In this document: piece after piece, positions 27,171 through 30,887 of the stretch
How positions within the stretch are numbered: position 1 is the stretch's first letter
Layout of the letters: each line of letters begins with the position of its first letter
Position numbers and translations under genes: made by a program
The notes under the pieces: generated by a model
What the model saw: the letters and a program-made list of their open reading frames with translations, nothing else
Databases searched by the model: none
What the model was told of the DNA's origin: nothing
Source: a bacterium
Lineage (GTDB): Bacteria; Bacillota_I; Bacilli_A; Izemoplasmatales; Izemoplasmataceae
Reading direction: 5' to 3'
NCBI GenBank assembly: GCA_018400875.1
Contig: JAGYLV010000001.1
Coordinates: 1-64,000, forward strand
Length of the DNA: 64,000 bases

Positions 27171-27204
27171 GGTTAAATGCTATAATAATCGCAAGGAGAT
27201 GCCT

Positions 27205-27999
27205 ATGACAATCAGTAATTATCACAGTCACCATGAGCTTTGCCGGCACGCCGAAGGCACCGCCGTTGATTACGTTAAAAAAGCCATTGAGCTCGGATTC
27301 AAAGACTTAGGCATCAGTGATCACGTGCCGTCTGATTTACTCCCAGACTCGATGCGCATGCGATTTAGTGAATTAGAAGGCTATGTTGAAGATGTCTTAA
27401 GCGTCCAAAAAGCCTTAAAAGACCAAATCAATGTCTATTTAGGGATGGAATGTGAATACTTAGAAGTCGACGTTAAATACTATGAGGATTTCTTAAAGCA
27501 AGTCGATTACTTGGTTTTAGGACAACATTATGTGAAAGATGATGCTGGGTTTCACAGTGCTTTTTATTTAAAAACCCCCGAGCACGTCATCGCCTACGGT
27601 GACCGCGTCGTCAAAGCGTTAGAAAGCGGATACTTTAGTTTATTCGCGCATCCTGATCTATATATGTGTGGACGCGATACATTTGATGAGGCAGCCATCC
27701 AAGTCGCACACAAAATCGGAAAAGCCGCGGAAGACACAAAGATACCATTAGAATTTAACGCGAATGGCATCCGAAGAGGGATTAAAAAGACATCTCAAGG
27801 AATGAGATATCCATATCCAAGAATTGAATTTTGGGAAATCATCAAAAACTATCATGTGGATGTCATCTTAAGTTCAGATGCACATCACCCCAATCTCTTA
27901 TATGACGATGCGATGAAAAAAGCAGAAGCCCTGATCGAACAGTTAGAGCTCAAACGAATTCACACGCTCTCAATGAAACATCTCAAAAATCGCCTCTAA
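27205..27999 (+). CDS. PHP-domain histidinol-phosphatase-like phosphoesterase
   Basis: NYHSHHELCRHAEG, GMECEYLE, HPDLYM, SSDAHHPNLLY; start moved to 27205 after AAGGAG. Confidence 0.88.
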   Translation: MTISNYHSHHELCRHAEGTAVDYVKKAIELGFKDLGISDHVPSDLLPDSMRMRFSELEGYVEDVLSVQKALKDQINVYLGMECEYLEVDVKYYEDFLKQVDYLVLGQHYVKDDAGFHSAFYLKTPEHVIAYGDRVVKALESGYFSLFAHPDLYMCGRDTFDEAAIQVAHKIGKAAEDTKIPLEFNANGIRRGIKKTSQGMRYPYPRIEFWEIIKNYHVDVILSSDAHHPNLLYDDAMKKAEALIEQLELKRIHTLSMKHLKNRL

Positions 28000-28096: not shown

Positions 28097-28231
28097 TCAC
28101 TTAAACATATTCAAACACAAAAAGATGACCCCGTTTAAAATGTGATAGCCTAGATGAAACCCATCTTTAATAGGGTCATTGGATGCAATGCCTATGATTA
28201 AACCCCCAAGAAGTGGGATTTTTAATAACAC
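28097..28231 (-). CDS. Possible small hydrophobic protein or gene remnant
   Basis: GTG-start ORF VLLKIPLLGGLIIGIASNDPIKDGFHLGYHILNGVIFLCLNMFK; AT-rich region, no clear RBS. Confidence 0.3.
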   Translation of the reverse strand: MLLKIPLLGGLIIGIASNDPIKDGFHLGYHILNGVIFLCLNMFK

Positions 28232-28236
28232 GATTT

Positions 28237-28264
28237 ACTTTCTATAATATATATTATGTTAACA
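28237..28264 (+). other. dif: Candidate dif site (XerC/D recombination site)
   Basis: ACTTTCTATAA-TATATA-TTATGTTAACA; 24/28 match to B. subtilis dif as recalled, identical central hexamer; at the strand-bias switch. Confidence 0.75.
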
Positions 28265-28422
28265 TTCGTAAATGTAATTCCAAAGGCGTGCACGTTAATC
28301 AGTGTGTAAATGGTGAATTGTATTTCTGTTTCTTCTATCTCTGGTTGCACCCTAAAAACCTTGAATCTTAAAAATGCGATTTGAACAATGTTACAGCTTC
28401 TATTTTTGAAAGGAATTTGCTG

Positions 28423-29400
28423 ATGAGTAAAGTTGCCATAGTCATGACGGGTGGAACGATCACCATGAAAATCTTCGATCCAGAACAAGGTGCATTTCCC
28501 ATGCAAGATGCTTCTGACATCATTGAAGTTTTGAATGATCGACTTGGATTTCAAAATCTTGTCACTCATAAGTACGCGATGATTCCATCCCCGTCGATGA
28601 CCCTTGAGAGAATGAAAGATTTAAAAGATTTCATTGATCCGATTCTAGCAGATCCTGAAATTTCAGGGATTGTCATCACTCATGGAACCGATGCTTTGGA
28701 AGAAACCGCATTTTATTTGGACCTCGTTCACACCTCTGAAAAACCGGTCATCGTAACCGGCGCCATGAAAAATGCATCTGAAATTGGTTATGATGGATTT
28801 ACTAACTTAGTCAGTGCAATCTATACCGCACAAAATCCGACCTCTCAAAATAAAGGGGTTTTGGTCGTCATGAACTACGAAATTCATGCGGCCTGGGAGG
28901 TGACTAAAACCCATACCCTTAACTTAGATACATTTAAATCACTCTCATTCGGCCCCTTAGGAATAATTGACGGAGAGCATGTTATCTATTATCGGCTGCG
29001 TAATCGTTGGTCTTTTCGGTTTGATAATGCGTTTGAATCCCCTGTGCCTATCATCACGACCTATTCAGGGATCAATCCGAACATGCTTGAACAGTTTGCA
29101 AACAAACCAATTAAGGGTATTGTTATTGAGGCTATGGGCCGGGGGAATGTACCGCCTCAATTGGTAAAGCCGATTGAAACACTCATCGAGAAAGATATTC
29201 CGGTTATCGTGGTATCCCGCGTTCCTAATGGTCGGGTCTTTGATACCTATGGGTATCCAGGTGGGGGAAAAGATCTCATAAAAAAAGGTGCCATATTTGG
29301 CACCGATTTAACGGGCTTAAAAGCCCGTATCTTATTAATGGTAGCTTTGGGTAATCACTATCAAAAATCTGATTTAAAAGAATTATTCACTTATCAGTAA
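28423..29400 (+). CDS. Type I L-asparaginase
   Basis: VMTGGTITM, ITHGTDALEETAFYL; ATG 28423 behind AAAGGA. Confidence 0.92.
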   Translation: MSKVAIVMTGGTITMKIFDPEQGAFPMQDASDIIEVLNDRLGFQNLVTHKYAMIPSPSMTLERMKDLKDFIDPILADPEISGIVITHGTDALEETAFYLDLVHTSEKPVIVTGAMKNASEIGYDGFTNLVSAIYTAQNPTSQNKGVLVVMNYEIHAAWEVTKTHTLNLDTFKSLSFGPLGIIDGEHVIYYRLRNRWSFRFDNAFESPVPIITTYSGINPNMLEQFANKPIKGIVIEAMGRGNVPPQLVKPIETLIEKDIPVIVVSRVPNGRVFDTYGYPGGGKDLIKKGAIFGTDLTGLKARILLMVALGNHYQKSDLKELFTYQ

Positions 29401-29719
29401 TAGCTTTTAACACATTGGCAATACTTGGTAGTTTATCTCTCAAAATTGCATAAATTATATCAATTGAAATGCCTTCATATTCATGTGAAATTATGTTTCT
29501 CAGTCCAATTAATTTTGGCCAATCAATATCGGGATAGGCGACCTTAAAATTCTTAGATAATTTTTTTGCAGTTTCACCAATTTGTTCTAAGTTGAGAATG
29601 ACTGCGTCAATTTTTTCCTCTTCCAACTGAAATTCTTGAAATGTATTAATGTCATTCATGTATCTTTCAATCTTTTCCAAATATTTAATAATTCGTTCAA
29701 CATAGATTTTATCGTTCAT
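29387..29719 (-). CDS. HepT-like (DUF86) ribonuclease toxin
   Basis: RNIISHEY (RX4HXY) motif; starts at MNDKIYVERIIKYLEKIE, overlapping the MNT gene by 11 nt. Confidence 0.88.
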   Translation of the reverse strand: MNDKIYVERIIKYLEKIERYMNDINTFQEFQLEEEKIDAVILNLEQIGETAKKLSKNFKVAYPDIDWPKLIGLRNIISHEYEGISIDIIYAILRDKLPSIANVLKAITDK

Positions 29720-30203
29720 AAACAAGCAATCCAGTTCTTTTGATTTCTTCATCAATTCTGGAGTTTGATTCAATGGTCCGATTACTAAGCAATTGAACCT
29801 TTTTTCTGAGTGTTGATCTTATCTCTTCTACAAACTCAAAATATTCTAATTCGTATAAATCTGAAATCATGAATAAGTCTATATCACTCATCGGATTCGC
29901 TTTACCATTTGCATACGAACCAAATAAATATATCTGTTCAACGTTATAATTTTTTGCCACATTAGCAATCAAATTTTTAATTGTTAAATATGATAAGATT
30001 CCATGAGTTTCATCAATATTTTGGTTAGATTCAATACTCTCTCTTAACAAGCGATCAATTATCAAATCAAGAACCCATTCACTAGGCCTTCGAATAGATT
30101 GCTCCCAATTTCTAATAGTGTTTATTGGAATTCCTGAATAGTGAGAAAATTGTTTTTGCGTTAACTGCAAATTATTTCTAACTGTTTTTATTAATTCATT
30201 CAT
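29709..30203 (-). CDS. HTH-MNT nucleotidyltransferase antitoxin (MntA-like with N-terminal XRE HTH)
   Basis: LTQKQFSHYSGIPINTIRNWE HTH plus GSYANGKANPMSDID (GSX10DXD). Confidence 0.88.
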   Translation of the reverse strand: MNELIKTVRNNLQLTQKQFSHYSGIPINTIRNWEQSIRRPSEWVLDLIIDRLLRESIESNQNIDETHGILSYLTIKNLIANVAKNYNVEQIYLFGSYANGKANPMSDIDLFMISDLYELEYFEFVEEIRSTLRKKVQLLSNRTIESNSRIDEEIKRTGLLVYER

Positions 30204-30298: not shown

Positions 30299-30856
30299 TT
30301 ATTTTGCTTTTCGCTGTAAAGCTTGACGGACTAATGTGGCCGTATCCAAAGTTGGATCGAGTGAATCGGTTAAAGCCGCAATCTCTTTAGCTTTATAGCC
30401 CAGTGATTTGAGGGCGTCTTCCACCTCTTCAAGTTTAGGGGATGTTTTGAGTGATACCCCACTGCTGGTGACTTTGCCTTTGAGATCTAAGACAATCTGT
30501 TGCGAGGCTTTTGGACCAATGCCTGGGAAACGGTTTAAGTATTTCGCATCACCTGTTTCAATCGCCCGGATAATATCATTGACTTCCGCGCTGGCAAGTA
30601 CGGCGAGTGCACTTTTGGGTCCGATGCCTTTGACACTGATGAGACGCTCAAAGAGGGCTTTTTGCTCGAGTGAATGAAATCCATATAATATGGCCTGATC
30701 TTCACGCACATAATGATAGGTATGGACGAGCGCATCTTGATTCAGGGTAAATGCATACGGATTAGGCGGGACGATGTGATAGCCTATCCCTTGATTGTCT
30801 AAGGTAATGCCTTGTGGGTCGATGCCTTTGATAGTGCCTTGAATATAGTTATACAT
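30299..30856 (-). CDS. ruvA: Holliday junction branch migration protein RuvA
   Basis: GIGPKSALAVLA and PGIGPKASQQIVLDLK HhH motifs; start MYNYIQG. Confidence 0.95.
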   Translation of the reverse strand: MYNYIQGTIKGIDPQGITLDNQGIGYHIVPPNPYAFTLNQDALVHTYHYVREDQAILYGFHSLEQKALFERLISVKGIGPKSALAVLASAEVNDIIRAIETGDAKYLNRFPGIGPKASQQIVLDLKGKVTSSGVSLKTSPKLEEVEDALKSLGYKAKEIAALTDSLDPTLDTATLVRQALQRKAK

Positions 30857-30887
30857 CGTATCCTCCAATAGTTTGTTTTATAAACTA

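What the first reader, a model, noticed from the sequence alone, without database searches (positions are those of the whole stretch)
28237..28264. Strong candidate dif site at the window's strand-polarity switch (replication terminus)
Seen: ACTTTCTATAA-TATATA-TTATGTTAACA, with two 11-nt arms around a TATATA hexamer in an otherwise gene-poor AT-rich gap. Known: recalled B. subtilis dif is ACTTCCTAGAATATATATTATGTAAACT (24/28 matches, same centre); the E. coli XerD arm TTATGTTAAAT also matches closely. Genes left of about 29.4 kb are mainly +, genes right of it almost all -, so transcription converges here as expected at a terminus. Inference: this is the chromosome terminus and XerC/XerD target.
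Basis: partly seen in the sequence, partly recalled or inferred. Interest (0 to 1): 0.78.

Follow-up and report, generated by a model that had tools for sequence, protein, structure and literature searches.

The report
Chromosome dif site with accessory repeats
The 28-letter sequence is almost certainly the site where this bacterium's XerC and XerD enzymes separate chromosomes that became joined in a ring, and in this group of bacteria it carries a conserved extra DNA module about 100 bases away that I found no published description of and whose binding protein is unknown.

Summary
The 28-mer is present at 28237-28264, occurs once in the 662-kb assembly (81.5% complete), and by all sequence tests is a chromosomal dif. 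Relatives carry it (3 or fewer mismatches) exactly once in 60 of 101 genomes, none with the reversed control. In several relatives GC skew changes sign at it, and in two single-contig relatives it lies 2.7-3.5% of the chromosome from the point opposite dnaA. The window shares gene order around the site with both. Its own GC skew is flat. XerD (55 kb away) and FtsK-gamma are encoded; XerC was not found in this assembly but is present in the genus.

An inverted repeat, TAAACATANTCA-N11/12-TGANTATGTTTA, ends about 99 bp before the XerC arm in 73 of 78 loci (0.28% of background stretches), including 18 of 19 loci with different flanking genes. Its arms do not covary, so a protein site is likelier than RNA. 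ArgR and RTP were not found. The position parallels the Arg-box of plasmid cer. Most likely it is an accessory-protein site acting at the terminus; the mechanism is unproven.

The parts
28237..28247 (+). dif, XerC arm ACTTTCTATAA
28248..28253 (+). dif, central hexamer TATATA
28254..28264 (+). dif, XerD arm TTATGTTAACA; nearly invariant in relatives
28102..28113 (-). Left arm TAAACATATTCA of the conserved inverted repeat
   Evidence: repeat scores 19 of 22, only hit of 17 or more on the 146-kb contig
28126..28137 (+). Right arm TGACCCCGTTTA of the conserved inverted repeat; ends 99 bp before dif
28166..28178 (-). Weaker third half-site TTTAATAGGGTCA (offset about -71)
   Evidence: offset shared by about half of the loci
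28205..28223 (+). Terminator-like hairpin CCCA-AGAAG-TGGG followed by a T run, just left of dif; a comparable hairpin is seen in only part of the family
28303..28313 (+). Right-hand conserved element TGTGTAAATGG (offset +66); TGTGTAAATG invariant in the four genus members
27202..27999 (+). PHP-family (HisJ-like) gene, conserved left neighbour in the family
28423..29400 (+). Asparaginase-like gene, conserved right neighbour
30299..30868 (-). ruvA, conserved further right neighbour

Best explanation
The 28-mer is the chromosomal dif site of an Izemoplasmatales-like bacterium, where XerC and XerD, with FtsK, resolve chromosome dimers at the replication terminus. In this lineage dif is the core of a larger conserved DNA module of roughly 200-350 bp. 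On the XerC side an inverted repeat ending about 99 bp from the XerC arm, and often a third half-site about 60-70 bp from it, most likely bind an unidentified dimeric protein; on the XerD side there is a conserved TGTG element. Shown here by sequence: dif identity as far as copy number, position in relatives and synteny can show it; conservation, spacing and dif-linkage of the inverted repeat. Inferred: that XerCD recombine here, that a protein binds the repeat, and that it acts on the Xer complex or on machines that arrive at the terminus. Among specific mechanisms I favour, weakly, a cer/psi-like accessory complex controlling recombination (about 35%), then an SMC-unloading or other terminus-organising site (about 25%).
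For: Site unique in window and assembly; once per genome in 60 of 101 relatives, no reversed-control match. Skew flips at it in G010, G024, zrk7 and G116; near-opposite dnaA in G010 and G024. Synteny PHP-dif-asparaginase-ruvA-obg-radC with G010 and G024. XerD-type gene on the same contig, FtsK-gamma in the assembly. Module: conservation falls to background outside about -270..+160; repeat at fixed offset in 73 of 81 loci, 73 of 78 lineage loci at 16 or more of 22 versus 0.28% background, and 18 of 19 loci without the usual flanking genes; arms do not covary.
Against: The window's own GC skew is flat. XerC not found in this incomplete assembly, and its XerD-like protein scores just under the curated cut-off (321.7 versus 329.6 bits). 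No binding protein is known. In zrk7 the dif copy of the repeat (17) is not distinct from other hits in the sampled DNA. 41 of 101 relatives have no match within 3 mismatches, which I did not follow up.
Confidence: 0.82

Rival explanations
1. The module works like the accessory sequences of plasmid sites cer and psi: a protein on the repeat shapes the flank so that XerCD resolve dimers rather than form them, in addition to or instead of FtsK control. This is the leading specific form of the best explanation.
For: Same side and distance: the repeat ends 99 bp from the XerC arm, the cer Arg-box is 98 bp upstream of the XerC site (PMC2409434); plasmid accessory sequences of about 200 bp lie next to the XerC site (PMC11724359).
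Against: ArgR absent in 21 of 21 genomes, PepA found in 7 of 21; FtsK-gamma present in all 8 genomes tested, so FtsK control is available.
Confidence: 0.35
2. The repeat is a terminus site where XerD or another protein unloads SMC complexes or organises terminus DNA, without a direct role in recombination.
For: In B. subtilis XerD bound to its sites unloads SMC at the terminus (cited in PMC10945525 and PMC12322038). The half-site shares TATGTT with the XerD arm. A XerD-type gene lies 2.0-4.7 kb from dif in most non-Izemoplasma relatives.
Against: The resemblance to a XerD arm is within background (score 3.5, background 95% at 4.3). Single half-sites are not enriched near the terminus in G010. 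The published motif could not be compared.
Confidence: 0.25
3. A replication fork trap of the RTP/Ter kind.
For: Terminus location and an inverted repeat.
Against: No RTP family member above cut-off in 81 genomes, with B. subtilis as positive control. An unrelated terminator protein is not excluded.
Confidence: 0.06
4. Conserved regulatory signals of the neighbouring genes (terminator, promoter) that merely lie next to dif.
For: The PHP and asparaginase genes flank dif in most family members; a terminator-like hairpin is seen in part of family f1.
Against: The repeat is equally strong in loci with neither gene (mean 18.1 versus 18.3). The right-hand element was not tested this way.
Confidence: 0.06
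5. A structured RNA overlaps dif.
For: Inverted repeats and hairpin; folding energy mildly low.
Against: No covariation between the arms; no Rfam match reaching gathering score.
Confidence: 0.04
6. An attachment site of a mobile element or plasmid rather than the chromosomal dif.
For: 13 viral contigs carry a similar core.
Against: One copy per genome, conserved chromosomal neighbours and skew flip in relatives; dif core plus right-hand element in 0 viral contigs.
Confidence: 0.02

Closest known systems
Chromosomal dif of the two-recombinase Xer system (B. subtilis / E. coli type)
   Same: 28 bp, 11-6-11, single copy, intergenic, at the terminus in relatives, XerD, XerC (in the genus) and FtsK-gamma encoded
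   Different: Carries a conserved inverted repeat and other elements at fixed distances; XerD gene often close to dif
cer and psi Xer sites of ColE1 and pSC101 with accessory sequences
   Same: Protein-site-like element on the XerC side about 98-99 bp from the XerC arm
   Different: Chromosomal; 6-bp centre; no ArgR found; PepA in only 7 of 21 genomes; FtsK-gamma present; repeat unlike an Arg-box in arrangement
difSL-xerS and difH-xerH modules
   Same: Recombinase gene close to the site in many relatives (2.0-4.7 kb)
   Different: Canonical dif and two recombinases
XerD sites for SMC unloading in B. subtilis (XDS)
   Same: Terminus location; half-site slightly resembles a XerD arm
   Different: Motif could not be compared; resemblance not significant

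Membership tests
dif/XerCD chromosome dimer resolution | 28-bp site with two 11-bp arms and a 6-bp centre | tested here: met
   4 differences from the recalled B. subtilis dif
dif/XerCD chromosome dimer resolution | One copy per chromosome | tested here: met
   own assembly 81.5% complete
dif/XerCD chromosome dimer resolution | Located at the terminus / skew shift | tested here: met
   In relatives and by synteny; own skew flat
dif/XerCD chromosome dimer resolution | Genome encodes XerC and XerD | tested here: inconclusive
   XerD-type found; XerC not found in this incomplete assembly; two Xers in each genus mate, XerC- and XerD-type in G003
dif/XerCD chromosome dimer resolution | FtsK with gamma domain | tested here: met
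dif/XerCD chromosome dimer resolution | XerCD bind and recombine the site | not testable with these tools
   needs in vitro or in vivo assay
cer/psi accessory-sequence Xer sites | Conserved element at a defined distance on the XerC side | tested here: met
cer/psi accessory-sequence Xer sites | ArgR present to bind the accessory sequence (cer type) | tested here: not met
   0 of 21
cer/psi accessory-sequence Xer sites | PepA present | tested here: not met
   7 of 21, absent from the own assembly
RTP/Ter fork trap | RTP protein | tested here: not met
XerD SMC-unloading site (XDS) | XerD-binding motif | tested here: inconclusive
   published motif not available
Structured RNA | Covarying base pairs | tested here: not met

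The most novel reading that the evidence does not exclude
The Izemoplasma-Acholeplasma lineage of Bacilli has a composite chromosomal dif: a dedicated, still unknown DNA-binding protein sits on a conserved inverted repeat about 99 bp from the XerC arm and builds a terminus complex that controls XerCD recombination or SMC release, combining features of the plasmid-type (accessory sequences) and chromosome-type (FtsK) modes of Xer control.
Probability: 0.4. Interest if true: 0.78.

Novelty: new variant of a known kind. Interest (0 to 1): 0.5.

Why it matters
The site itself is an expected part of a bacterial chromosome. In E. coli, chromosomal dif is controlled by FtsK and genome polarity, whereas accessory sequences are described for plasmid Xer sites. 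A lineage-wide chromosomal dif with an accessory repeat at a fixed distance would suggest a mixed mode of control, and named Acholeplasma strains carry it, so footprinting and pull-down of the binding protein should be feasible. It also gives a specific marker for placing the terminus in fragmented draft genomes of this group, where skew can be weak.

Tried and rejected
RNA gene: no covariation between arms, no Rfam match reaching gathering score. RTP fork trap: family not found. ArgR/PepA complex as in cer: ArgR not found, PepA in 7 of 21. Half-sites as XerD sites: resemblance within background. Conservation explained by neighbouring genes: rejected for the inverted repeat. DnaA box at +66: strict box in only 30 of 81 loci. 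GAAGAAG as an FtsK-guiding signal: lagging-strand genes carry it away from dif, so much of its skew is coding bias; intergenic 30:8 toward dif in G010 and the AGAAG polarity inside the module leave it possible. B. subtilis-type GAGAAGGG: almost absent. Loss of XerC in rumen relatives with a XerD-like left arm: not supported in G102-G105 (two strong Xer genes each); G101 shows only one. Own GC-skew test: uninformative. The first flank alignment mixed orientations and was redone. The XerD/SMC paper was not held. Single half-sites are not enriched near the terminus in G010. Looking for dnaA in the first 8 kb of three other single contigs gave nothing useful.

Full report
Observation. The 28-mer ACTTTCTATAATATATATTATGTTAACA is at 28237-28264. 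It is unique within 3 mismatches in the window (0.00 expected) and in the whole assembly G000, 662 kb in 35 contigs, 81.5% complete. Genes are mostly + to the left and mostly - to the right; the switch is at about 29.4 kb. The site lies in an intergenic stretch of about 420 bp between a PHP-family gene (27202-27999) and an asparaginase-like gene (28423-29400).

Organism.

It is dif. Relatives carry the site within 3 mismatches in 60 of 101 genomes, always once, with no reversed-control match. In two single-contig relatives it lies 2.7% (G010) and 3.5% (G024) of the chromosome from the point opposite dnaA (positions). GC skew and gene strand flip at it in G010: left 20 kb +0.087 and 78% plus genes, right 20 kb -0.164 and 16%. 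Skew also flips in zrk7 (+0.085/-0.114), G116 (+0.143/-0.173) and G024 (+0.069/-0.078). The window shares the order PHP-dif-asparaginase-ruvA-obg-radC with G010, G024, G001 and G002, and with G003 apart from a weak, fragmented obg match. This ties the site to the terminus of those chromosomes, although the window's own skew is flat (-0.034/-0.011) and its dnaA is on another contig. One Xer gene was found in the assembly, on the same contig 55 kb from dif, between hemW-like and deoB-like genes (gene names by inspection), best matching XerD (321.7 bits, cut-off 329.6). All three genus mates have two Xers; in G003 one is XerD-type and the other XerC-type. FtsK-gamma is present.

A conserved module around dif. 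With all loci turned by dif, conservation extends over roughly -270 to +160 and then drops to background. The clearest element is an inverted repeat TAAACATANTCA-N11/12-TGANTATGTTTA. Among 81 non-redundant dif loci the best match falls at offset -135 to -132 in 73. Allowing the gap to vary from 10 to 13, 73 of 78 lineage loci score 16 of 22 or more, against 0.28% of background stretches; three loci from outside the lineage score 10. In the window it scores 19 (28102-28137), the only hit of 17 or more on the 146-kb contig; in G010 the dif copy is the best hit in 832 kb; in zrk7 the dif copy scores 17 and is not distinct from other hits. The consensus was read off these same loci, so scores lean in its favour; the fixed offset and the loci without shared neighbours are the independent support. 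The repeat is equally strong in loci lacking both the PHP and the asparaginase gene nearby (18 of 19, mean 18.1 versus 18.3), although in some of these the contig ends close by. So it belongs to dif rather than to the neighbouring genes. A weaker third half-site lies near -71. On the right, a TGTG element starts at +66; a pattern of dif core plus this element hit 65 stretches in the collection of 85,462 genomes, 63 of them in Izemoplasma, Acholeplasma, Anaeroplasma, Peloplasma and related or loosely named MAGs, and 2 in Halodesulfovibrio, which lack the repeat. No viral contig matched. Among other Bacilli families, loci of f10, f11 and f19 show no such repeat, whereas some in f5, f7, f12 and f22 appear to (by eye and score).

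What the module might do. The arms vary independently, there is no Rfam match reaching gathering score, and folding energies are only mildly low; a protein-binding DNA element is the better reading. Its place, on the XerC side and ending 99 bp from the XerC arm, parallels plasmid cer, whose Arg-box is 98 bp upstream of the XerC site (PMC2409434), and the rule that accessory sequences of about 200 bp lie next to the XerC site and make recombination FtsK-independent on small plasmids (PMC11724359). But ArgR was not found in 21 genomes and PepA was found in only 7, so a different protein would be needed: it may work like cer, but it is not a cer-type member. Another reading is SMC unloading, which XerD performs at the B. 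subtilis terminus (cited in PMC10945525 and PMC12322038; the original paper was not held); the half-site looks only weakly like a XerD arm. An RTP fork trap is unlikely (0 of 81 genomes above cut-off). AGAAG points toward dif on both sides of the module (82:8 and 2:28); it is contained in GAAGAAG, listed as the L. lactis FtsK-guiding motif in PMC6466248, though much of its genome-wide polarity follows gene strand.

XerD linkage. In 12 of 13 genomes of Acholeplasma, Anaeroplasma, Peloplasma, zrk7 and rumen relatives a strong Xer match is 2.0-4.7 kb from dif (positions); four of these were tested and are XerD above cut-off. In zrk7 the match is partial (155-aa open frame). In Izemoplasmatales with both on one contig the distance is about 37-90 kb. 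This recalls the difSL-xerS and difH-xerH modules (PMC2731167), but with a two-recombinase system.

Novelty. dif itself is expected; Kono et al. predicted dif in 641 organisms and mention Tenericutes (PMC3025954). I found no description of the accessory module in the open literature searched, but most subscription papers are not held, so earlier description cannot be excluded.

Noticed in passing
window 29387-30203: HepT-like HEPN and MntA-like nucleotidyltransferase pair (type VII toxin-antitoxin) between the asparaginase and ruvA genes, 1.1 kb from dif; both matches are below the curated cut-offs. No match at the same place in G001-G003, G010 or G024, so probably a recent insertion.
   Followed up: partly
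L171, L196, L199, L217, L212, L161, L168, L187, L201, L204, L170, L214: A strong Xer match lies 2.0-4.7 kb from dif in 12 of 13 genomes outside Izemoplasmatales; four tested are XerD-type.
   Followed up: partly
L165, L168, L201, L204, L187 (dif regions): In rumen relatives the XerC arm reads AAGTTATCATAA, close to the XerD arm reversed, making dif nearly symmetrical; G102-G105 keep two strong Xer genes, G101 shows only one.
   Followed up: partly
window 28205-28223 and the same place in family f1: Terminator-like hairpin with a variable stem just left of dif in part of family f1; it could shield dif from transcription.
   Followed up: partly
L305-L317: 13 IMG/VR contigs carry the dif core TATAATRTATATTATGTTAAC; possibly dif-integrating phages or host contamination.
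   Followed up: no
L183, L203: Two Halodesulfovibrio loci have a similar dif core with TGTGGATAA at a similar distance on the right but no left inverted repeat.
   Followed up: no
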